Below, piece after piece: positions 23,364-37,105 of a stretch of 64,000 nt of DNA. Numbering within the stretch: position 1 is the stretch's first letter; each line of letters opens with the position of its first letter. A model generated the notes under the pieces. It ran no database searches, was not told where the DNA came from, and saw only the letters and a list, made by a program, of their open reading frames with translations. The stretch is taken from NCBI RefSeq assembly GCF_001245615.1, contig NZ_CWKH01000003.1:186001-250000 (forward strand), given 5' to 3'. The translations under genes were made by a program, and so were the position numbers. Origin of the DNA: Mycolicibacterium neworleansense (lineage in GTDB: Bacteria > Actinomycetota > Actinomycetes > Mycobacteriales > Mycobacteriaceae).

Positions 23364-24707
23364 ATGTCCACAAGTGTTCGTTCGTATCTGGTGGCGGGTG
23401 CCGCCGCAGCCACTGCCACAGCCATCGCGCTCACCCCGGTACAAGCAGCTCCCGCCGACATCGCCGTCCCCGCGCAACCGACCTCCGCCCAGCCGCAGCT
23501 GACGCAGGCCATGATCGATCTGCTCGCCGCGGCCAGCCGGATGACGGCCGCGGTGGCGCCAAACCTTTCCGGTACCGCTGATGCCCCCACGCTGGGACTA
23601 GCCCCGGCCGCCGCCACGACCCCCGAGGTGGGTGTCCAGAACGCGGCGGGCAACTTCGTGGAGTCCGCATACCTCGGCATCCAGGAATGGGTCGACTGGG
23701 CTGTCGACTACGGCACCGATCTGGCCTACTGGGTCGGGCAATGGGTTCCGTTCGTCAGCCCCATCACCACTCAGGTCGACATCTTCTACTGGGAACTGAT
23801 CAGACCGATCGCCAATGCCGTCGCTCTCACCTTCCTGGTCCCGGTGATCAACGACCCGCTGAATCTCGGCGTGTGGATCAACTCGGCGGGTGCGGCCATC
23901 ACGCAGTCGTTGCAGGCCGCGGTCAACTTCGGTGTCGCTGAGTTCAACCAGTTCTTCGGCTGGATCATCCCGCCGCTGCCGCCACCATTCCCCACGGTCG
24001 CATCCGTCGCGACGACCGAGACACTGGCCACGCCCTTGGCATCCGGCCTGCGAGACCTGGTCGGCGATCTGGTGGTGCGGCCGTCGGCGGATTTCATGAC
24101 CAGCCTTGCGGCACCCACGGCGATCTCCGAGGGGATCACGCAGCGCCCGCTGGAGTCCGTCACCGCCGCACTCACCAAGGTCGGCGAGAACTTGGCGACG
24201 ACGCTCGAGAAACTCGCCGAGGGAACGGGAATCGAGTCCCTCGCGGACCGGCTGAACGCACAGGTTGCGGGTGCCGAGCAGACCCTGGTCACCGAAGTCA
24301 CCGACGGCGTGAATGACACCGTCGAGGCAGATTCGAACGACGCCGAACAGCAGTTGAATCCGGCCACAGCCGAGATCAGCGCGGTCCCCAAATCGGTTCG
24401 GCAGTCACTGCGCAGTACTGCCGGCGATACGACGACAATCACCGACAGTGAGGACACGGCACAAGCCGACGAGGCACCGGCCCGCTCCGTCCGGTCGGTG
24501 CGGCAGGGCCTGCGCGACGCAGTTGGCAAGTCCACCGCGGACGCGGCGAAGAAGGCCGGCGACGACGCTCGCGACGCGGTCAAGGCCGCCGTCAAGCACG
24601 TGGCGCCGAAGCCAAAGCTGAAGAAGGAAAAGGCCGTGTCGTCCAAGGATTCCCAGGGGACCAAGGATTCCAGCGACAACGGCAAGCCTGCCAAGGACAA
24701 GAAGTAG
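23364..24707 (+). CDS. Secreted Ala-rich protein with Lys-rich tail
   Basis: A 447-residue predicted exported protein. The signal peptide is about residues 1-31 ([20 protein letters not shown], ending VQAAPA). The middle is amphipathic and aromatic-rich ([34 protein letters not shown]). The last 60 residues are Lys/Ala/Asp-rich ([19 protein letters not shown]) and end in a hydrophilic Ser/Asp/Lys segment. The signal peptide and tail resemble the paralog family at 27.9-37.1 kb, but the middle lacks that family's NPxPILRQ landmark, so it is at most a distant relative. A GGAG ribosome site precedes the ATG at 23364. In M. tuberculosis this slot beside fbiC holds PE12. Function is unknown. Confidence 0.75.
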
Positions 24708-27441: not shown

Positions 27442-27961
27442 CCAACCGCGGGCAAACTCCAGACAACGGAATCCGTAGTTTTTCAAACTGACCGAGCCTG
27501 CCACTTAGTTGCCAACGCAAGCACAGGCGAATACCGAGACCAACAGTCCCATTAGTGCGCCGGGCCTCATCGACGCGGGGTCTGTTTTACAGATCACACC
27601 GCTATGTCCACTGTGTGCGCGCTAACTCGGCAACCCGGATCACGGACGCATTACCGCTGGGTAACGTAACCACACTTATCGTCCAGGCCTTCGCTGGCAA
27701 ATAACTGTCTGTGCCTGTCACTAGTTTGCCACGACCAGCCTTGCATCTGCCCAAATATCGCTACACGCAGTATCGCAACGAGATGGCACGACCTCGGGAA
27801 ATGCGCACTACCAGCCATATTTCGGATACTCGGAGTTTATTTGCCAAGCGACAGGAAGGCTCCGACTGGCTGAAAAATAGTTAAGAAAATTTGCAGACAA
27901 CGAAACTTACTTTGGGGTAACTTCTGCGCCGACCTTAGTTACGCTCCCGTAAGGAGATTCA
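27442..27961 (+). other. 520-base intergenic region, locally AT-rich
   Basis: No coding frame, RNA gene or mobile element was recognised. The last 150 bases before the next gene are clearly richer in A and T than the flanking genes (e.g. AAAATAGTTAAGAAAATTTG near 27873-27892). The region probably carries promoter and 5' leader sequences for the first paralog of the island. A degraded insertion cannot be excluded. Confidence 0.5.
27905..27924 (+). promoter_or_regulatory. Upstream box shared with the gene at 31290
   Basis: ACTTACTTTGGGGTAACTTC here and AGTTACTCTCAGGTAGCTTC at 31232-31251 agree at 15 of 20 positions. Their 3' ends lie 38 and 39 bases before the respective start codons. Conserved sequence and spacing suggest a shared promoter or operator element; the regulator is unknown. 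Confidence 0.35.
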
Positions 27962-29278
27962 ATGCAACTCGCTGCCCGGTCGTATCTGGCCGCAGGAGTG
28001 GCACTCGTGGGTGCCAGCGCCATCGCCGTCAGCCCAGTGGCGCCATCCACCCCCGAGGTGTACACGCCAGTCGCACTGACGGCGGCAATCGACAATCCGG
28101 TGACGGTTTTTGCACCGGTGGCCACCGCGACTCAGGAACTGATCGCCAGCGTCATCGAACGCCAGACCAGCAACCCGGCCCCGATCCTGCGGCAACTCGG
28201 CGCCAATGCGGTGGCCGGCTACCAGTCGTTCATGTCCACTCCCCCGGCGTACCTCATCGCATACGCACTCACGAACGTCGTCATCGGCGCCCAGGAGTTC
28301 GGCCCCAACCTGAACAACTTCGGGACCGTCACGTCGGAGTCGTTGACCGCACTCGCCACCATCCTGGGCGACATGGGCGAGGGATTACCCGCCCTGCTGC
28401 AGGCGGCCGGTGCGCAGCTCGCCGCCGGCAATCCCAACGGCGCGATCGACGCGATCATGCTTGCCGGTCTGCAGCCGGGCGTCGACCTCCTGATGAACGT
28501 GCTGACGCCCGAGATGAATGCGATCGGTCAGCTGCTCGGCGTTCCGCAGCCGCTCACCGACGCCGCGGCCAATGCCGTCATCGGTGTCGCACTCGGAGCG
28601 ATCATCTCCACGGTCGGCATCGGGTTCGACCTCGGAGATCCGCAGCCGGTGGTCAAGGGGTTCATCTCCGGTGTGCAAACCGTGCTGGCCGGTGCAGCGT
28701 CCGGTGATCCGGCCACCTTCGTGAACTCCGTCCAGCACGGAGTGGCGAAGTTCGCCCTCGACGTCATCGGCCAGGCCGGCCAGATGAATGATTCGATCAA
28801 CTTCGCGGTCGACGGTTTCGTCGATGCGCTCAAGCAGATCGCTCCCAAGCCGTTCACCCCTCCGGACATCACCATCCCGACCGCCAAGGCCCTGGCCGCC
28901 CCGGCCCCGGCGACCCTGGTGGCCGCCTCCGTGGCGGACGAAGTGTCCGCACCGGCTCCGATTGCCAAGGCCGACACCGCTTCTGATGCCGAAGCCACCG
29001 AGACCGGAACCGAGACCGAGACTGCAGCCGAGGCACCCAAGGCCGATGGTGACGACACCGGCACGGCCGCCGGCACCGTCACCAAGGTGTCCACCAAGGC
29101 TGCAGTGAAGGCCTCGCCCAAGGCGCAGGTCAAGGCGGACAGCCCCGCCAAGACCGTTCGGGAACAGGTGAAGTCCGCCGTCAAGAAGGTGACCGGCGGT
29201 CTGAAGAAGGAGAAGGCCGGCACCGAGAAGAAGGCGGAATCCTCCAACGACTCCGCCAAGGGCTCCGACGCCGAGTAG
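27962..29278 (+). CDS. Island paralog 1: secreted Ala-rich, Lys-tailed protein (GjpA-like)
   Basis: A 438-residue predicted exported protein and first member of the five-gene family. The signal-type N-terminus is AARSYLAAGVALVGASAIAV followed by SPVAP. Family landmarks are NPAPILRQ near residue 70, AAGNPNGAIDAI in the middle and AASGDPATFVNSVQHG later. After an Ala/Thr/Glu-rich linker, the C-terminus is Lys-rich (REQVKSAVKKVTGGLKKEK) and ends in a Ser/Asp/Glu tip. Comparable mycobacterial proteins are, to my recollection, annotated as GjpA-like outer membrane porins, but no beta-barrel is obvious, so function is open. AAGGAGA precedes the ATG; a strong hairpin terminator follows. Confidence 0.8.
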   Translation: MQLAARSYLAAGVALVGASAIAVSPVAPSTPEVYTPVALTAAIDNPVTVFAPVATATQELIASVIERQTSNPAPILRQLGANAVAGYQSFMSTPPAYLIAYALTNVVIGAQEFGPNLNNFGTVTSESLTALATILGDMGEGLPALLQAAGAQLAAGNPNGAIDAIMLAGLQPGVDLLMNVLTPEMNAIGQLLGVPQPLTDAAANAVIGVALGAIISTVGIGFDLGDPQPVVKGFISGVQTVLAGAASGDPATFVNSVQHGVAKFALDVIGQAGQMNDSINFAVDGFVDALKQIAPKPFTPPDITIPTAKALAAPAPATLVAASVADEVSAPAPIAKADTASDAEATETGTETETAAEAPKADGDDTGTAAGTVTKVSTKAAVKASPKAQVKADSPAKTVREQVKSAVKKVTGGLKKEKAGTEKKAESSNDSAKGSDAE

Positions 29279-29293
29279 ACCAACCGCACCACC

Positions 29294-29330
29294 CGGGCAG
29301 GCACCCTCCACCCCCGAGGGTGCCTGCCCG
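29294..29330 (+). terminator. Strong hairpin after island paralog 1
   Basis: A perfect 15-bp stem, CGGGCAGGCACCCTC (29294-29308) with its complement at 29316-29330 and a 7-base loop, starts 16 bases after the stop. It is GC-rich without a long T tract, as is common for mycobacterial intrinsic terminators. Confidence 0.8.
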
Positions 29331-29382
29331 CCTTCCTCGAGGGCACCTCAGTCCCAAATATCCACTCCCGTAAGGAGATCTC

Positions 29383-30858
29383 ATGCAACTCGCTGCCCGG
29401 TCGTATCTGACCGCAGGTGTGGCACTCGTCGGTGCCGGCGCCATCGCAGTCAGCCCCCTGGCGCCGCCCATGCCCGATGTCCAGGTACCGGCGATCGACG
29501 CATCGTCCGCTGCAGTGAATCTGACCGCCGCCGCCAATCCCCTGCAACTGTGGGCCGACGTCATCGGTGCCACCGTCGAGAACCTGGGCGGCCTGGGCGA
29601 ACAGTTCTCGGCGGATCCCGCCCCGATCCTGCGCCAGATCATCGCCAACCAGTTGCACAGCGCGAATGTCCTCGGAGGGGCGACGCAGCGGCTCATCGAG
29701 GGCATGTCCGCCGCCCTCGATCCCGACAATTTTCTGAGTTTTCAGGCAGCCGTCAAGAGTGCCGTCGACCTGATCGCAGCCGGCGACCTCCAAATGGGCT
29801 TCGCCGGCCTGGTCACCAGCGGTCTCATGCTCGGACTGCCGCTGCTCGACTTCGTGGGGAATCAATGGGTTCCCGGTGCCTGGTCCGTGATCGCTCAACC
29901 GTTCGCGAACCTGGCCAACCTCGTCGAGAACCTTCCGGAGGGCGCACCGGCACTGCTGTTGAACGGAATCATCTCCCCGCTCACGGCAACCGCGGCGGCC
30001 AGTGGATACGTCCTGGAGAACCTGGCCGCCGCCACCACCGCCGGCGACGTGACCGAATTCGTTGGCACGTTGGTGAATTCGCCCGCGACCATCACTGGCG
30101 CGTTGCTGAACGGATTCGAGATCGACAACGGCGCAGGCTTGCCACCGACCTTCATGGCCGGCCTGCTGACCCCCGAGAACGGTTTCGTCCCAGGCGGAGC
30201 CGTCTCGACAGTGCTGAGTGTGATCTCCCAGATCGCCGACTCGCTGGCCACTCCCGGCGTAGACCGGGACAACCTCTTCGGCACTCCACCCAGCCTGACG
30301 GGGACCTCCGCTACCGCAGAGGCGGTCGCGGTGAGCTCCGCGCTCGCTCCGACGGCCAAGACCGTGACGCTGGATGTCGCGCAGACCGTCGCGCGGACCG
30401 AAGTCATCACCGCACCGGCTGCCGCTGCGTCGGACACCGCACCGGCCGTCGACATCGACGAGGCGTCCCCCGAGGGTGGCGACGCCGGCGCGGCGACGCC
30501 GTCCAAGGTGCCCACCAAGGTTTCGGTGAAGGCTTCGCCCAAGGCGCCGGCCAAGGCAGTCAGTCCCGCCAAGTCCGTTCGGGATCAGGTGAAATCGGCC
30601 GTCTCGAAGGTGACCGGCGGCCTGAAGAAGGACAAGGCCGGCCCCGCGAAGGCCGGCCCCGAGAAGAAAGCGGACTCGTCCTCCGGCTCCGCGAAGGACA
30701 GCGAGTACCCCCGCCACTCAGTCCGGCAGGCCCCCTCCACACCTCGGTGGAGGGGGCCTCCCACATTCTTGGGAAAGTCTCAGCCTGCGCTCAGGCGGAC
30801 CCCTTCCCGACGGTCGCGCGACGCGGCTTCGGCAAAATTGGCTGATTCCGACATTTGA
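29383..30858 (+). CDS. Island paralog 2, stop codon lost, reads through its terminator
   Basis: A 491-residue frame; the family part is residues 1-441. The first codons are nearly identical to paralog 1 (AARSYLTAGVALVGAGAIAV). The landmarks are DPAPILRQIIANQL and AGDVTEFVGTLVNSPATIT, then the Lys-rich tail (RDQVKSAVSKVTGGLKKDK) and SSSGSAKDSE. At the point where siblings end, the codon is TAC (30706-30708) instead of a stop. Translation would run 50 more codons through the terminator hairpin, giving an Arg/Pro-rich extension (YPRHSVRQAPSTPRW) unlike the family. A TAG-to-TAC change is the simplest explanation. Whether it is a sequencing error or real is not decidable here. Confidence 0.75.
   Translation: MQLAARSYLTAGVALVGAGAIAVSPLAPPMPDVQVPAIDASSAAVNLTAAANPLQLWADVIGATVENLGGLGEQFSADPAPILRQIIANQLHSANVLGGATQRLIEGMSAALDPDNFLSFQAAVKSAVDLIAAGDLQMGFAGLVTSGLMLGLPLLDFVGNQWVPGAWSVIAQPFANLANLVENLPEGAPALLLNGIISPLTATAAASGYVLENLAAATTAGDVTEFVGTLVNSPATITGALLNGFEIDNGAGLPPTFMAGLLTPENGFVPGGAVSTVLSVISQIADSLATPGVDRDNLFGTPPSLTGTSATAEAVAVSSALAPTAKTVTLDVAQTVARTEVITAPAAAASDTAPAVDIDEASPEGGDAGAATPSKVPTKVSVKASPKAPAKAVSPAKSVRDQVKSAVSKVTGGLKKDKAGPAKAGPEKKADSSSGSAKDSEYPRHSVRQAPSTPRWRGPPTFLGKSQPALRRTPSRRSRDAASAKLADSDI
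30728..30759 (+). terminator. Hairpin lying inside the extended frame of paralog 2
   Basis: A perfect 13-bp stem, AGGCCCCCTCCAC (30728-30740), with its complement at 30747-30759 and a 6-base loop. Its position 20 bases after the expected stop matches the terminators of the sibling genes, which supports the view that the ancestral gene ended at 30706-30708. Confidence 0.75.
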
Positions 30859-31289
30859 TTGCCAGAACAACATGTGGGCAAACCTCTCCTGGCGCGGCTG
30901 CCCGCGCGGTCGGCACCACAATTCGAGGCGGCGCCGACTCCACCCCGGGGTCATCGCACAGCGCCGCACGACGCACCACCCAGCGCAATCGTCGAGTGGG
31001 TCAGCCCCGCATTTTCACTGGCATTTCCGCTCCGGGTCCGTGTCGGCAGCTAAGCGAAATCACTCCACGGCCCGTGCGTGCGGCGACTCTGGCGGGCCAT
31101 CGTCACTGCCGCCACCATGACTTATTCGTCATGCTAATGACCAGTGATTTACAGCTAGTTCATGTTCCTCACGACCCAATTAACCGTCGATTCGACATTG
31201 GATTCAACTCTTCAAAAACGCAAATTTGTAAAGTTACTCTCAGGTAGCTTCAGCCTCGTCGGGGGATTGCATCGATCAGAGGAGAAGCA
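30859..31289 (+). other. 431-base intergenic region before paralog 3
   Basis: No gene was recognised. The first half has normal base composition; from about 31110 it becomes AT-rich. It includes a short inverted pair CATGAC/GTCATG (31116-31121, 31128-31133) and the box shared with paralog 1 (31232-31251). It probably holds the promoter and leader of the next gene. Confidence 0.5.
31232..31251 (+). promoter_or_regulatory. Upstream box shared with the gene at 27962
   Basis: Partner of the element at 27905-27924: 15 of 20 positions agree, and it ends 39 bases before the start codon of paralog 3. It contains GTTACT and GGTAGCTTC. The function is inferred only from conservation and spacing. Confidence 0.35.
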
Positions 31290-32498
31290 ATGCAAGTCGC
31301 AGCCCGTCCCTATCTCACCGCCGGCGTCGCGTTCCTCGGGGCCGGCGCCATCGCGATAAGCCCGGTCGCGCCGCCGATGCCCGACATCACCGTTCCGGCC
31401 ATTGCCTCAGCCCATGTCGAGCTTTCTGCAGCAACCAGCGCCTTCGAGGCCTACGTCGCCCTCATCACCAACACCGTCACCAACCTGCAAACCACCATTG
31501 CCGCCGAACTCGACAATCCGGTACCCATCCTGCGGCAGGTGATCGCCAACCAGATCAGCACCGCCACGAATCTCGGGGAAGGCCTGCAGGGCGCCGCCGA
31601 GGGCCTCGCCAACATCCTCGACCCGGCCAATCCCTTCGGGATTCCGGCTCAGCTGCAGCAGGCCCTCACAGACCTGCTCGCCGGAAACATCACCGGCGCG
31701 GTGAACAATGCCTGGGGTGCGTTGCTGAGCCCCGTGCTGAACGCCGGACTTCCGCTGTTGGAGCCGATCACCGCCGCAATCCGGCAGCCGATCCAGAACC
31801 TGCTCAACGTCGTGGACACCCAACTCGCCGTCGTGCTGCCGCTCCTGGGGGCGCTCAACGTCGGCTATGTGACGGTCACTACCGCAGCACAGGTCGGCCA
31901 GGACATCGTCGACTCGATCAGGGCCGGTGATCCGCTCGGTGTAGCCAACGCCATGCTCGGCGGACCTGCCGTGATCACCGATGCATTCCTCAACGGTGGC
32001 GACCTCGGCGGCGGCGTCTTCGGTCAGAGCCTGGGCCTGCTCTCCACGCTGCGGCAAGCCCGCGAAATGATCGCTGCCGCAATCACTCCGCCCGCACCCG
32101 AGGAGGCACGCTCGGCTGCGGACGCGACGCTGGCCGCGGCGAAGGTGGTGACGCTGGACGTCAGCCCGAAGGTGGCGACCTCGACTCCGGTTGAAGCAGC
32201 ACCTGTCGAAGCGGCACCGGCCGCCGAAGCACCGACGACGGAAACGGCGGAGGCACCGGCCGGTGCCGCCACCCCGGTGGTCAAGGACAGCCTGAAAGCC
32301 GAGCCCGGCAAAACCCTGTCGACCAAACGATCCACCTCGGCCAAACAGGTCCGCGAGGGCGTTCAGGGCGCCGTCAAGAACGTCACCGACGGAATCAAGA
32401 AAGCCGCAGAGGGACTGAGCGGCAAGAGCGCCAAGGCCGGCAAGGACGCCAAGTCCGGCGGGGAGTCAGCATCGTCAGGCTCGAGCAACGCAGCCTGA
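31290..32498 (+). CDS. Island paralog 3: secreted Ala-rich, Lys-tailed protein (GjpA-like)
   Basis: A 402-residue family member. The N-terminus is AARPYLTAGVAFLGAGAIAI with SPVAPPMPDI. The landmarks are NPVPILRQVIANQI, AGNITGAVNNAWG and RAGDPLGVANAMLGGPAVIT, then LRQAREMIAAAI before the Ala/Glu/Thr linker. The tail has repeated Lys-rich helices (REGVQGAVKNVTDGIKKAAE, then GKSAKAGKDAKSGG) and ends SSGSSNAA. GGAGAAG precedes the ATG. A terminator hairpin follows and is shared with lpqW on the other strand. Confidence 0.8.
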   Translation: MQVAARPYLTAGVAFLGAGAIAISPVAPPMPDITVPAIASAHVELSAATSAFEAYVALITNTVTNLQTTIAAELDNPVPILRQVIANQISTATNLGEGLQGAAEGLANILDPANPFGIPAQLQQALTDLLAGNITGAVNNAWGALLSPVLNAGLPLLEPITAAIRQPIQNLLNVVDTQLAVVLPLLGALNVGYVTVTTAAQVGQDIVDSIRAGDPLGVANAMLGGPAVITDAFLNGGDLGGGVFGQSLGLLSTLRQAREMIAAAITPPAPEEARSAADATLAAAKVVTLDVSPKVATSTPVEAAPVEAAPAAEAPTTETAEAPAGAATPVVKDSLKAEPGKTLSTKRSTSAKQVREGVQGAVKNVTDGIKKAAEGLSGKSAKAGKDAKSGGESASSGSSNAA

Positions 32499-32511
32499 TT
32501 CACCATCAAAG

Positions 32512-32543
32512 CAGTGGGCCTCCTCGGATGAGGGGGCCCACTG
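32512..32543. terminator. Bidirectional hairpin between paralog 3 and lpqW
   Basis: The stem is CAGTGGGCC plus an inner TCCTC (32512-32525) pairing with 32530-32543, about 14 bp with one G-T pair and a GGAT loop, followed by TGTTTGTG. The two flanking genes converge on it, so it can serve both. Confidence 0.8.
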
Positions 32544-32551
32544 TTTGTGTT

Positions 32552-34420
32552 CTACCGGGCCTTTGCCCAGTTGCCCGCATCGCCGACGATGCCGACGGGC
32601 ACGGCCCCGGTCAGGCTGACGTTCTGCACGCTGGGCCCGGCCGCGACGATCGTGGTGTCCTGCAGGATCGGAAGAACGGTCGACATGTTCCACAACCGTG
32701 GCTCGACGGCCTGGATGACCTCGGCGATGTTCTGCGAACCATCCAGTGCCGCATCAATTCTCGGCTGGATGCTGTGGTCGCAGATGCCGGTGATATTGCT
32801 GGGCGCCTGCACCAGCTCACCCGAGTCCGGCGCCGGAATCGGCTGAGTCGGTGTCGGTGTGGTGGTCGGCGCGGGCGCAGCACTGGTCGTCGGCTTCGGT
32901 GACGACGACGGCGCGACACCGGGCACCGAGGTCGAGACGGCGGTCGCTTCCAGTGCGCGGCAGCCGTAGCGCGAGGCCAGGCTGGTGGCCAGGTCCCCCC
33001 CGGCCTGATGCCAGCCGACAACGGCGTCGACCCGGTTGTTGGTCAGCGCATCGCCATAGAGCGCAACCGGATCCAGGGCCAGCACCGAAGCATCGATGCC
33101 GACATTGCGGAGCTGGTCGGCCGCGGTATTGGCCACGGCGACCGAGGTCGGATCGTTGGACGCCACACCGAGCACCAACGCCAACGGGGCACCGTCCTTG
33201 GTGATCCGCTGCCTGCCGTTGTTCGGCGCCGGCGGCTCACCGGGCTCGGGGGGCTCGGCCACCGGTTCGATCTGATATCCCGCGCCGCGCAACAGGTCCA
33301 GCGCGGCTTCCCGCGACATTGCCGGCGGCGCGGTCGGTACATAGCCGGGATCCGACGGGGAGCGCACCTGCGCCTGCGCCAGCGTCACGGTGTTGTCGTC
33401 GCCCGCACCCACCGACGCCAGCAGGTCGACGTCGATCAGGCCCAGGATCGCCTTGCGCACCTGGGCCTCCGCCAACGTGGGCTGCCCGCCGCGCAGGGTC
33501 AACTGCATCACCCGCGGCGTGACGATGCGGGCCGTGCGGACATCCGGGATGGCACTCAACTGCGCGAAAGTGGCTGCGCCACCATGCACCTGGGCGACCT
33601 GGGTGTCACCGTTGCGGATGGAGTCGGCCAGCGCTGCCGGCGCGCCACCCCGGCGGAACAGCACCAGGTCGGGCTTGGCCGGCTGACTCCAATACCGGTC
33701 GTTGCGGGCGAGCAGGATCTCGTCACGTTGCGGGTCGATGCTCTCCACCCGGAACTGTCCGCCGGTGACCGGCATCGCGCGGGCCAGGCCGGCACCGAAA
33801 CCGCCGGGAATGTCTTTGACGATGTGGGCCGGCAGGATGTCGTTGAACAGCTCCCGCCATGCCGGATAGGGCTGGGAGAAGGTCACCACTGCCTGCTTGC
33901 CGCCCTCCACCGATTGCACACCGGTGATCAGGTCGTAGCCGGCCGGGTCGACAACGCCTGGCTGACTGACCATTTGGCGCCACAGGTACCAGTAGTCGTC
34001 GGCGGCGATGGGAGCGTTGTCGGTCCATTGCGCTTCCGGCCGGATCTTGTAGGTGACCGTGAACGGGCTCTGGTTGGTCACCTCGGCCGATTCGAGCAGC
34101 GTCGGGTCGAGCTCCCAGCGTGACCCCGTCGGAGACTTGGGGTCGGGCACCGGGCGGAACGAACTCGGCAGCACCATCGAAGCAACTGCCGCATTCACCG
34201 GAGACTGGTCCGACAGGAGGTGCGGGTTGAACCCCGGGCCGATCGAGTCGATGGCCATGATGATCTGCGTCGCCTTCATCGGAGGCGGCGGCGTGGTCTC
34301 CGTGGTCTCGGTGCTCTGCGGGGCCGGCGGTGGGCTGACCGTGCAGCCGCTGAACAGAAGCGCCGGCACCGAAACGAACGCGCCGATCGTCAGGCGGGCG
34401 CGGCGGAGGGGTGTCGGCAC
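32552..34420 (-). CDS. lpqW: Lipoprotein LpqW, PIM/LAM branch-point regulator
   Basis: A 622-residue lipoprotein related to family 5 extracellular solute-binding proteins. The signal peptide ends in the lipobox LLFSGC with lipidated C26, then a Pro/Thr-rich linker and an SBP_bac_5 body ([60 protein letters not shown]). A Pro/Ala/Thr-rich insertion is seen around residues 500-540. LpqW acts with PimE at the AcPIM4 branch point to favour lipoarabinomannan synthesis; pimE is also in this window. It matches Rv1166 and here lies inside the paralog island on the opposite strand. Confidence 0.93.
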
Positions 34421-34702
34421 GCCACTCAGCGTATCGACCCTTCCGGGCTGCCACAGCCGCGCACCGGCACTGCGCCGCCAGCTATCAGATCCGGTTCGAT
34501 GTATCCAAGTCTTTCAAGGTGCAATAAATCGGCGCTGCCCAGCTGTTTAGGCGTTGAGCTGCACAGATTCCGCCCCGAAATCAGGCCGCTGACAGCGAAC
34601 TTGGCCGCGTTACCCGCTTTTTGCATCCATCTCAGAGCATTCTCATATACCGTCTGCCGTCAGCCGGAGTGACCGGCATCACACTCAAGGAAGGAGTCAC
34701 CG

Positions 34703-35866
34703 TTGGCACAAGCACTGCGGCCCTACGTAACGGCCGGCATCGCGATCGCGGGCGCCGGCGTCATCGCCGTCACCCCGGTATCAACTCCCCCACCGCAGCC
34801 TTCGGTCCAATATTCGTCCGTCCACCTCTCGGGGTCTGTCCAGAGCCTCGACAGTCAGCTCACCGCCGAGGCGGCGGCCAATGCCATACCGCCAGAGCTG
34901 ACCCCGGCCGAGGCCTACCAGTACTTCGCGATGTTGACCGCGGCCTACGTGATGGACGCCATCGCGCCGATCGTCAGCAATCCGACACCGATCCTCAGCC
35001 AGATCCTGGCCAATCAGTTCTGGTACGCGAATATCCTCACCATGGGCACCGTGACCGGGGCGACGAACCTGCTGTGGACCTTGGAGCAGGTGCCCGAGTA
35101 TCTGAGCACGGCAGCCGCGCAACTGATGGCCGGCGATCCCGCCGCAGCGATCACGACGCTGTGGAACAACGTGGTGGTGGGTTCTGTGATGGCCGTTGGC
35201 TTGCCACTCGTACCGGCCCTCCAGATCCCGGTGGCGATCAGTCAGAATATCGCCAATGTCGTTGCCGCCACCCCAATGATGGTCATGGGCCTCGGTTTTG
35301 ACGCTCTTGCGACAGCCAACAGCACCGTCGGAGCGGTGACCGCATCCATCCGAAGCATCGTCGATTCGGCGAGCTCCGGCGACCCGACCGCAGTGCTGAA
35401 CGCGGTGCTCACCGCGCCGGCCAAGATCGCGAGCGGATTCCTCATCGGCGGCTACCCGGAGGGAAACACCGGCCTGATCAACGGCGTCATCAAGCACCTG
35501 GTGCTGGCACGCGAGACCATCGCCGAAGCCCTCGGTGCGCCGCCCCGAGAGATTCCCGAAGGCGCGACTGCTTCCGCAAAGGCACCCGCCCGCATCGCCA
35601 GTATCGCGGACGAAACCACAACGGAAACAGCAGCTTCCGATGGAGCGGAGAAGCCGGCCGCGCCGGAACCGGAGGCGAAGCCAACGCTCGTCCGTACCAG
35701 TGCGAAGGCGGTGCCGGGAAAGGTCGGGTTGACCGGCAAGCACCGCAGCGAGGCACCCAAGCTCGCCAAGTCGATCAGCGATCACATTTCTACGGCCGTC
35801 AAGAAAGCGTTCACCAAGCCCGACAAGAAGGATTCGGGTTCAGGTAGCACCAGCCCCGCGGAGTAG
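34703..35866 (+). CDS. Island paralog 4: secreted Ala-rich, Lys-tailed protein (GjpA-like)
   Basis: A 387-residue family member divergent from lpqW. It starts with TTG after AAGGAG; the N-terminus is AQALRPYVTAGIAIAGAGVI with AVTPVSTPPPQP. The landmarks are NPTPILSQILANQF, AGDPAAAITTLWNN and SSGDPTAVLNAVLTAPAKIA, with HLVLARETIAEALG before the linker. The tail is shorter and differs (SISDHISTAVKKAFTKPDKK) and ends SGSTSPAE. It differs from paralogs 1-3 more than they differ among themselves. Confidence 0.8.
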   Translation: MAQALRPYVTAGIAIAGAGVIAVTPVSTPPPQPSVQYSSVHLSGSVQSLDSQLTAEAAANAIPPELTPAEAYQYFAMLTAAYVMDAIAPIVSNPTPILSQILANQFWYANILTMGTVTGATNLLWTLEQVPEYLSTAAAQLMAGDPAAAITTLWNNVVVGSVMAVGLPLVPALQIPVAISQNIANVVAATPMMVMGLGFDALATANSTVGAVTASIRSIVDSASSGDPTAVLNAVLTAPAKIASGFLIGGYPEGNTGLINGVIKHLVLARETIAEALGAPPREIPEGATASAKAPARIASIADETTTETAASDGAEKPAAPEPEAKPTLVRTSAKAVPGKVGLTGKHRSEAPKLAKSISDHISTAVKKAFTKPDKKDSGSGSTSPAE

Positions 35867-35983
35867 CCGCCCGTTCCCGCCGTGGATCAACAATTCGAAG
35901 GTTGCCCACAAGAATCTGAATGTTATTTTCTGGCATTCCTTGTACGTTCGCGCCGGTCGGACAATGAATGCAAGGAGAACACA

Positions 35984-37051
35984 GTGCACCTAGCCCTACG
36001 ACCCTATGCCGCTGCCGGGGTGGCGCTGGCCACCGCCGGCGTCATCGCGGCTACCCCGGCAATCCTGCCCCCAACCGAAATCCAAACCCGCGCAGTCCAG
36101 ATGGTGGCGCTGGACAACCCGATCGAAGTCTTCACCCCGGTCTTCGATCAGGCCAGCGCTTTGGTCCAGCTCATGATCGCGAACGAGACCGCCAATCCCG
36201 CACCACTTCTGAACGCGATCATCGCGCGGGCCAGCGCGGACGGCCAAACGCTCGGAGAGATCGGCAACGGCTTGGCTGCCGCAGCGACAGCGGTGGCAAC
36301 CAATCTGCCCCCGGCACTTGCCAATGCTGTCGAGCGTTACGCGGCGGGCGATCTCGTCGGCGGGTACGACGCCGTCGTCCCTGCGTTCATCGGCCCGTTC
36401 CTCGGATTGTTCAACCAGGTCGTGAAACTGCAGAACATGCTCACCGCCGACGCCGGGGTGATGCAGGCGCTGGTCCGCCCGCTCATCTACCAGGTGGCGT
36501 GGAGTTTCGTGACGGTCCCGGCGCTCTCGTTCGCGGGATTCGCCCGTACCACCCTGGGGGCCATCCAGACTGTCGGCACGGCAATCGCCAGCGGCAATCC
36601 CGAGGCCGCCGCCAATGCCGTTCAGCATGGCCTGGCGGACATCGCCTCGGTGATGGTGGGCACCGCCAAAACGGTCTATACGTCCGTCCAGTCCGCGCGC
36701 ACCCGTCTTGCCGCGCCGTTCCGACCCGGCCTGCCCACCACCACGGCAGCCGTCGAGACCGCAACGACGCCGGCGCTGACCGCGGCGCCGGAAGAATCAA
36801 CGCCGCAGGCCGACGAAACTGCTTCTGCTGCAAAGGAACAGACAGCACCTGTGGCCGTCAGGACCAAAGCAGCTCCGGCGGTCAAGGCACCTCGTGCCAA
36901 CGTACGCATCAACAACAGCGCGCGTGAATCGGCCAAGAACCTCAGCGCCGGAATCAAGAAGGCCGCCGACGGGATCAAGAAAGCCGCCCAAGGCCTGAGT
37001 GGCAAGAAGGCCGAGAAGCCCAGCTCTGATTCAGGGAGCGCCGCCGAGTAA
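35984..37051 (+). CDS. Island paralog 5: secreted Ala-rich, Lys-tailed protein (GjpA-like)
   Basis: A 355-residue family member. The GTG start at 35984 follows AAGGAGA and gives the family N-terminus (HLALRPYAAAGVALATAGVI with AATPAI); an upstream in-frame ATG is not used. The landmarks are NPAPLLNAIIARAS, AAGDLVGGYDAVVPAF and ASGNPEAAANAVQHGLADIA. The third block reads VQHG as in paralog 1. The tail has IKKAADGIKKAAQGLSGKKA and ends DSGSAAE, closest to paralog 3. It lies 117 bases after paralog 4 with no clear terminator between, so the two may share a transcript. Confidence 0.8.
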   Translation: MHLALRPYAAAGVALATAGVIAATPAILPPTEIQTRAVQMVALDNPIEVFTPVFDQASALVQLMIANETANPAPLLNAIIARASADGQTLGEIGNGLAAAATAVATNLPPALANAVERYAAGDLVGGYDAVVPAFIGPFLGLFNQVVKLQNMLTADAGVMQALVRPLIYQVAWSFVTVPALSFAGFARTTLGAIQTVGTAIASGNPEAAANAVQHGLADIASVMVGTAKTVYTSVQSARTRLAAPFRPGLPTTTAAVETATTPALTAAPEESTPQADETASAAKEQTAPVAVRTKAAPAVKAPRANVRINNSARESAKNLSAGIKKAADGIKKAAQGLSGKKAEKPSSDSGSAAE

Positions 37052-37062
37052 CCCGCAGACCC

Positions 37063-37105
37063 CAGTAGGCCTCCTCATCCGACTGAGAGGGGGCCTACTG
37101 CTTTT
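37063..37105. terminator. Hairpin terminator after island paralog 5
   Basis: CAGTAGGCC (37063-37071) pairs with GGCCTACTG (37092-37100), with further partial pairing inside (CCTC with GAGG), and is followed by CTTTT. It resembles the hairpin after paralog 3 (CAGTGGGCC). The typA gene converges from the other side. Confidence 0.75.

What the first reader, a model, noticed from the sequence alone, without database searches (positions are those of the whole stretch)
27442..37105. Tandem island of five paralogous exported Ala-rich proteins with Lys-rich tails, split by lpqW
Five genes (27962, 29383, 31290, 34703, 35984) share a signal-type N-terminus (ARPYxxAGVALxGAGxIA), an NPxPILRQ-like block near residue 70, two later AGDP/SGDP blocks, an Ala/Glu/Thr linker, a Lys-rich amphipathic tail and a Ser/acidic tip. 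The order of landmarks is the same in all five, so they are true paralogs rather than convergent low-complexity proteins. Separate terminators and long AT-rich leaders suggest individual regulation. Similar proteins are, as I recall, called GjpA-like porins in mycobacteria, but no beta-barrel pattern is evident. The basic tails recall heparin-binding haemagglutinin in composition only. This could be an under-described envelope or surface protein family undergoing local expansion.
Basis: partly seen in the sequence, partly recalled or inferred. Interest (0 to 1): 0.75.

Follow-up and report, generated by a model that had tools for sequence, protein, structure and literature searches.

The report
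Exported mycobacterial proteins with swappable ends
Five neighbouring genes of a mycobacterium make exported proteins assembled from exchangeable pieces, and their helical middle part is the same domain that many relatives attach to PE proteins, which use a different export machine; this offers a lead on which proteins let nutrients through the mycobacterial outer membrane.

Summary
The five paralogues are real: signal-type N-terminus, all-helical core, acidic linker, amphipathic Lys-rich tail, Ser-rich tip. They are distant relatives of the 'GjpA porin' family (all below its cut-off; the genome holds a separate true GjpA) and match no Pfam family.

Genes 1 and 2 share signal and Lys tail with low synonymous divergence, yet their cores differ as much as any pair; the core tree joins gene 1 with gene 5, the ends tree mixes 1 and 2, and one species has a gene-2 core with gene-3-like ends. 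None of 141 ORFs has both N-termini. (3) Lys-rich tails occur in 51 of 76 Sec-type and 0 of 49 PE-type ORFs.

So the core looks like a cargo with interchangeable delivery ends: Sec plus basic tail here, PE in PE-rich genomes. I infer an envelope permeability (channel-type) protein; no function was shown. Sec/PE swapping has precedents (LipY, PE-PPE domain), so this is a new variant of a known kind.

The parts
27890..27961 (+). Conserved A-type leader of gene 1, with TTACTTTGGGGTAACTTC at 27907-27924
   Evidence: Nearly the same in 11 of 11 A-group genes and before 3 B-group genes (L055, L057, L121); pattern TTACTHTNRGGTARCTTC has 2 exact sites in the genome, here and before gene 3, and 2 more with 2 mismatches; reversed-pattern control 0
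27962..29278 (+). Gene 1 (group A): N-terminus 27962-28051, core 28076-28831, last 85 codons 29021-29275
29383..30858 (+). Gene 2 (group B): N-terminus 29383-29472, core 29521-30246, tail to 30711; ORF runs on 48 codons
31220..31289 (+). Conserved C-type leader of gene 3, with TTACTCTCAGGTAGCTTC at 31234-31251
   Evidence: Shared by 11 C-group and 3 C2-group genes with variation
31290..32498 (+). Gene 3 (group C): N-terminus 31290-31379, core 31422-32084, tail helix 32337-32417
34703..35866 (+). Gene 4 (group D): N-terminus 34703-34792, core 34886-35533, last 85 codons 35609-35863
35984..37051 (+). Gene 5 (group E): N-terminus 35984-36073, core 36101-36721, tail helix 36917-36991
23364..24707 (+). 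Sixth gene beyond mshB: same kind of N-terminus and Lys-rich tail, no detectable core
   Evidence: N-terminal profile 3.5e-13, but the gene is one of that profile's 20 rows; five-gene profile only 0.127; no core match listed
32552..34420 (-). Neighbour, not part of the family: SBP_bac_5 protein taken as LpqW

Best explanation
SHOWN BY SEQUENCE: the island is a set of mosaic genes. Delivery ends (a conserved ~30-residue signal-type N-terminus and a Lys-rich amphipathic tail with a Ser-rich tip) are joined to a ~220-residue core predicted to be all-helical. Genes 1 and 2, and C/C2 in other species, share ends but not cores. The same core is joined to PE or PE+PGRS in PE-rich genomes, without the Lys tail. 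INFERRED: the core is an envelope (mycomembrane or wall) permeability module of channel type; Sec plus the basic tail deliver and retain it here, and a type VII route, probably ESX-5, does so in slow growers; several cores in one genome would give different solute or surface properties. My odds: modularity and homology of the core about 0.9, envelope location about 0.75, channel function about 0.35.
For: Mosaic. Core behind PE: core-only profile hits at 7e-32 to 8e-14, with 229 shuffled and 229 reversed ORFs giving no E below 0.62; PF00934 in 8 of 8; hhalign E 6.6e-30, probability 99.8, reversed control 0.7; 36 of 40 picked loci PE-type. Tail follows route: 51 of 76 against 0 of 49. Link to GjpA: core profile hits the genome's true GjpA at 8.4e-13; NCBIfam names GjpA an outer membrane porin; PMC4559739 says that its authors isolated a pore-forming protein from Gordonia jacobaea, without naming GjpA (whole text). 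Context: PMC4418733 (passages) ties ESX-5, stated to be only in slow growers, to outer membrane permeability and nutrient uptake with no single substrate identified; helical mycomembrane pores exist (PMC12632848, passages).
Against: No functional data. Models are moderate (pLDDT 62-63, pTM 0.42-0.44) and without fold match. Few helices are strongly hydrophobic: one core stretch or none over Kyte-Doolittle 1.6 per protein. AU tests on the ends do not reject A alone (0.21), B alone (0.12) or A+E (0.09). Pooled over all paralogue pairs, within-genome ends are no more alike than between-genome ones. If the PE_PGRS30 C-terminal domain is this core (untested), then print says that it is not exposed on the surface (abstract) and is dispensable for the phagosome phenotype (passages).
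Confidence: 0.5

Rival explanations
1. Structural or adhesive wall proteins without a channel: the helical core packs as a bundle in the periplasm or wall, the basic tail binds acidic polymers or lipids, and several copies tune surface charge, aggregation or attachment.
For: Tail is amphipathic and basic, more amphipathic than shuffled tails in 38 of 40 proteins; few strongly hydrophobic core helices; no fold match to channels.
Against: The core, not the tail, is what PE-rich genomes keep; relation to GjpA, which is named a porin.
Confidence: 0.35
2. Recombining surface antigens or receptors: exchange of cores under shared delivery ends serves variation against phages or other attackers.
For: Mosaic genes; copy number differs between species; gene conversion is described for PE_PGRS genes (titles and abstracts in a search listing).
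Against: Cores are conserved between species (dN/dS 0.06-0.25 in the core region of the compared orthologue pairs), which does not look like diversifying selection; no within-species data.
Confidence: 0.12
3. Sec-type and PE-type cores are alike only by composition (Ala-rich helical sequence), not by descent.
For: Both are Ala-rich; 26 of 30 shared conserved columns were counted on an alignment made with a Sec-built profile, which leans towards agreement.
Confidence: 0.03

Closest known systems
GjpA, 'outer membrane porin GjpA' (NCBIfam NF033942)
   Same: N-terminal motif and core are related: model hits all five island genes in the whole-genome search (22.2 to 58.8 bits) and 43 of 53 members
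   Different: All five are below the 100-bit cut-off; the genome's true GjpA is elsewhere (C1:2602939, 397.7 bits)
PE and PE_PGRS proteins with a large C-terminal domain
   Same: The C-terminal domain is this core in the loci read
   Different: Window proteins have no PE domain; PE-type ORFs have no Lys-rich tail (0 of 49)
LipY and the PE-PPE domain (PF08237)
   Same: One cargo behind PE, PPE or a signal peptide depending on species (passages of PMC7550000 and PMC3037379)
   Different: Those cargos are hydrolases; this one is an all-helical domain with no enzyme signature found
PorA/PorH helical mycomembrane porins of Corynebacterium
   Same: Helical proteins said to form mycomembrane pores (passages of PMC12632848)
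   Different: Those are 45 and 57 residues; no sequence relation was found or searched for beyond the family scans
YSIRK/GXXS signal peptides of staphylococci
   Same: A conserved signal peptide shared by different surface proteins
   Different: Other motif; no evidence of septal targeting here; known to me from abstracts in a listing

Membership tests
GjpA subfamily (NF033942) | Score at or over the curated cut-off of 100 bits | tested here: not met
   0 of 5: no hit, 56.9, 38.7, 15.4, 29.0 bits
GjpA subfamily (NF033942) | Homology to the model | tested here: met
   5 of 5 in the whole-genome search, 22.2-58.8 bits; core profile hits true GjpA at 8.4e-13
GjpA subfamily (NF033942) | Channel-forming activity | not testable with these tools
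   needs purified protein
PE proteins (PF00934) | N-terminal PE domain | tested here: not met
   No PE hit in the five
C-terminal domain of PE/PE_PGRS proteins found here | Homology of the core over its length | tested here: met
MspA-type beta-barrel porins | Beta-barrel fold | tested here: not met
   No Pfam hit; models all-helical, moderate confidence
Heparin-binding haemagglutinin | HBHA coiled coil plus Lys-Ala-Pro repeats | not tested
   No direct comparison made; only that no Pfam family matched

The most novel reading that the evidence does not exclude
The core is a family of helical mycomembrane channel modules that fast growers export through Sec with a basic-tail anchor and that slow growers carry on PE proteins for ESX-5, so that this family is one of the missing ESX-5 permeability substrates; within an island, recombination mixes delivery ends and channel cores.
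Probability: 0.25. Interest if true: 0.85.

Novelty: new variant of a known kind. Interest (0 to 1): 0.62.

Why it matters
ESX-5 is reported to give slow growers outer membrane permeability, but the substrates responsible were not identified in that work (PMC4418733, passages). A cargo shared by Sec proteins, GjpA and a defined subset of PE/PE_PGRS proteins names candidates that can first be tested in harmless species. The mosaic genes also suggest that signal and basic tail form a delivery cassette that moves between cargos.

Tried and rejected

Caveats: orthologue groups and AU-test groups were named after seeing trees and divergences. The 21 genomes were chosen because earlier hits there looked PE-like, and the 40 loci from the upper part of its list, so 36 of 40 is no rate for the genus. 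Loci from PE-poor genomes came mostly from searches with profiles that hold the signal region, so they lean to Sec type. Rows are not independent (some loci repeat one genome). Tool lists were cut. Left out of the tree and later: L046 and fragments in L063 (no usable start), L060 copies with masked bases, members under 100 bits.

Full report
OBSERVATION. The five ORFs are at the stated places and align with shared landmarks in one order. Gene 1 as single query finds genes 2, 3 and 5 in the genome, not gene 4; profiles join gene 4 (35% identity to gene 3). Flanks: mshB (TIGR03445, 451 bits), a ClC channel (PF00654), the SBP_bac_5 gene taken as lpqW, and a gene that I recognise from its sequence as typA (not searched). 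The genome has 6.29 Mb; the best LpqW matches are Mycolicibacterium species such as M. peregrinum and M. porcinum, so the window is probably from the M. fortuitum group (inference).

FAMILY. Of 53 members, one has one chance-level Pfam hit, the rest none. NCBIfam GjpA hits 43 of 53 weakly and the five window proteins at no hit, 56.9, 38.7, 15.4 and 29.0 bits against a cut-off of 100. The genome's true GjpA lies elsewhere (397.7 bits). A profile of the five finds 16 places at E < 0.01 in this genome, the five included; the core profile finds 12 at E <= 1e-8. In the genus 85 of 118 genomes match at E <= 1e-5; at family level 29 of 201, in 5 of 30 genera.

LOCUS. Among 80 lpqW loci, 73 show typA, lpqW and mshB; 49 of these have no family gene between typA and mshB at 75 bits or more, and 24 have 1 to 5 (11, 7, 1, 4 and 1 loci with 1, 2, 3, 4 and 5 genes); 48 of those 49 genes run opposite to lpqW. 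So the site gains or loses copies.

STRUCTURE. AlphaFold for gene 3 (53 rows, pLDDT 62.8, pTM 0.42) and gene 5 (37 rows, 61.6, 0.44) gives helices at residues 51-283 and 46-246 with NPxP and (A/S)G(D/N) at turns, a disordered linker, and one tail helix (350-376; 312-336); only two isolated bridge residues in gene 3. No PDB match at E <= 0.001. The N-terminal 30 residues are the most conserved (mean entropy 0.7-1.1 bits per ten positions; most blocks of the core 1.7-2.6). A22 (52 of 53) with A or V at position 20 (52 of 53) would suit a signal peptidase site (inference). The tail is more amphipathic than shuffled tails in 38 of 40 proteins.

MOSAIC GENES. Groups A (gene 1) to E (gene 5), and C2, were named from the tree of 56 proteins; 40 rows follow. 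Orthologue pairs give dN/dS 0.14-0.29 overall; LpqW, as comparison, 0.07. Between genes 1 and 2, dS is 0.24 in codons 1-30, 0.36 in the last 85 codons, 1.26 in the core and 0.95 in the linker; protein identity is 83, 64, 28 and 29%. In five genomes holding both, pS averages 0.30 (N), 0.32 (tail) and 0.61 (core); A-C pairs give 0.73, 0.58 and 0.58. Third-position identity, ends against core: p from 5.5e-10 to 1.2e-6 in 5 of 5 genomes. A-B pairs from different genomes also have alike ends (0.35, 0.39), so much of the sharing is older than these species; and over all paralogue pairs pooled, within-genome and between-genome values are the same: the effect belongs to A-B and C-C2. In L048 the tails of C and C2 are 93-100% identical in four successive 20-codon windows, the cores 43-85%; in L049 the tails are less alike. 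Core tree: A with E (98), B with C and C2 (90). Ends tree: A and B mixed in one group (99), the L055 B-core gene with C. AU tests: A+B rejected in the core (p 0.0005); in the ends A+E not rejected (0.09) but rejected in the tail alone (0.018); A alone (0.21) and B alone (0.12) not rejected in the ends; B with L055 rejected (3e-5). The A-type leader stands before B genes in L055, L057 and L121, where no A gene was seen in the stretch, while the five B genes behind an A gene keep only its last bases. Conversion of ends or replacement of cores both fit.

SAME CORE BEHIND PE. In some genomes hits began after the signal. The ORFs there are PE proteins (PF00934 in 8 of 8). The core-only profile (residues 45-265) hits these 8 and one more (L176) at 7e-32 to 8e-14; among 229 shuffled and 229 reversed ORFs the best E is 0.62. 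The independent GjpA model touches 3 of the 8 (best 7.7e-7). The core matches in 83 of 118 genus genomes at E <= 1e-8. From 21 picked genomes I read 40 loci in 18 genomes: 36 with a PE N-terminus, 3 Gly-rich with the 5' end outside the ORF, 1 Sec type (G081). Over all loci (core E <= 1e-6): 49 PE, 76 Sec, 12 other, 4 Gly-rich ORFs, none with both. hhalign: probability 99.8, E 6.6e-30, 216 columns; reversed control probability 0.7. Of 30 columns conserved in half or more of both groups, 26 carry the same residue, on an alignment made with the Sec-built profile. In the core tree 41 PE rows and 5 Gly-rich or partial rows form one group (99); L176 falls elsewhere, but all 47 together are not rejected (p 0.67). 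One move of the core suffices; direction is not shown.

ROUTE. A PE-core ORF was seen in each of the 19 of them from which loci were fetched; G096 and G098 were not fetched. In 13 fetched genus genomes with 15 or fewer PE hits, no core ORF was of PE type, though most of these loci were found with profiles holding the signal. The window's genome has 3 PE hits. Eight or more K+R in the last 80 residues after the core: 51 of 76 Sec-type, 0 of 49 PE-type ORFs.

ENDS WITHOUT CORE. The N-terminal motif also heads proteins without a listed core match: L038, L040, L041, L042 and the sixth gene. So signal and cargo are separable both ways.

MECHANISM. Inferred: the signal exports, the basic tail and Ser-rich tip retain the protein in wall or mycomembrane, and the core does the work, most likely permeability. 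Helical mycomembrane pores exist (PMC12632848, passages), so lack of a barrel is no objection; the Ser-rich tip might carry mycoloyl groups (speculation). Against: no measurement, moderate models, few strongly hydrophobic helices.

KNOWN AND NEW. Cargo swapping between PE, PPE and signal peptide is known for LipY and the PE-PPE domain (PMC7550000, PMC3037379; passages). PMC7550000 says that PE_PGRS30 and Rv3812 share a C-terminal domain of about 300 residues; I suspect this core (several PE+PGRS+core ORFs here have 909-1159 residues) but did not test it. No paper linking GjpA, these Sec proteins and PE C-termini was found (open-access library only). Hence a new variant of a known kind.

Noticed in passing
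30712-30858: Gene 2 has no stop where 7 compared orthologues end; the frame runs 48 codons on through a terminator-like inverted repeat.
   Followed up: partly
27890-27961 and 31220-31289: Leaders of genes 1 and 3 are strongly conserved between species; the 18-base element TTACTHTNRGGTARCTTC occurs exactly only there in the genome. Regulator unknown.
   Followed up: partly
23364-24707: Sixth gene with the same kind of N-terminus and Lys-rich tail but no detectable core.
   Followed up: partly
L170 (G051) and L171 (G014): Four PE-core genes in a row in each stretch, so the PE form also occurs as tandem arrays.
   Followed up: partly
L045 439-1872 (+), own genome C3:1087259: An exported protein that looks like a phosphoglycerate mutase relative ends in a similar amphipathic Lys tail (weak match, E 0.41; seen). 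PMC7550000 reports a mutase domain behind PE_PGRS11: perhaps another cargo with two routes.
   Followed up: no
L063 4179-7220: Family gene pieces in several short frames in M. hubeiense, looking like decayed copies.
   Followed up: no
L036 (own genome C2:390495): Sec-type family member with the core and a long Gly-rich, PGRS-like tail, in a genome with 3 PE hits.
   Followed up: no
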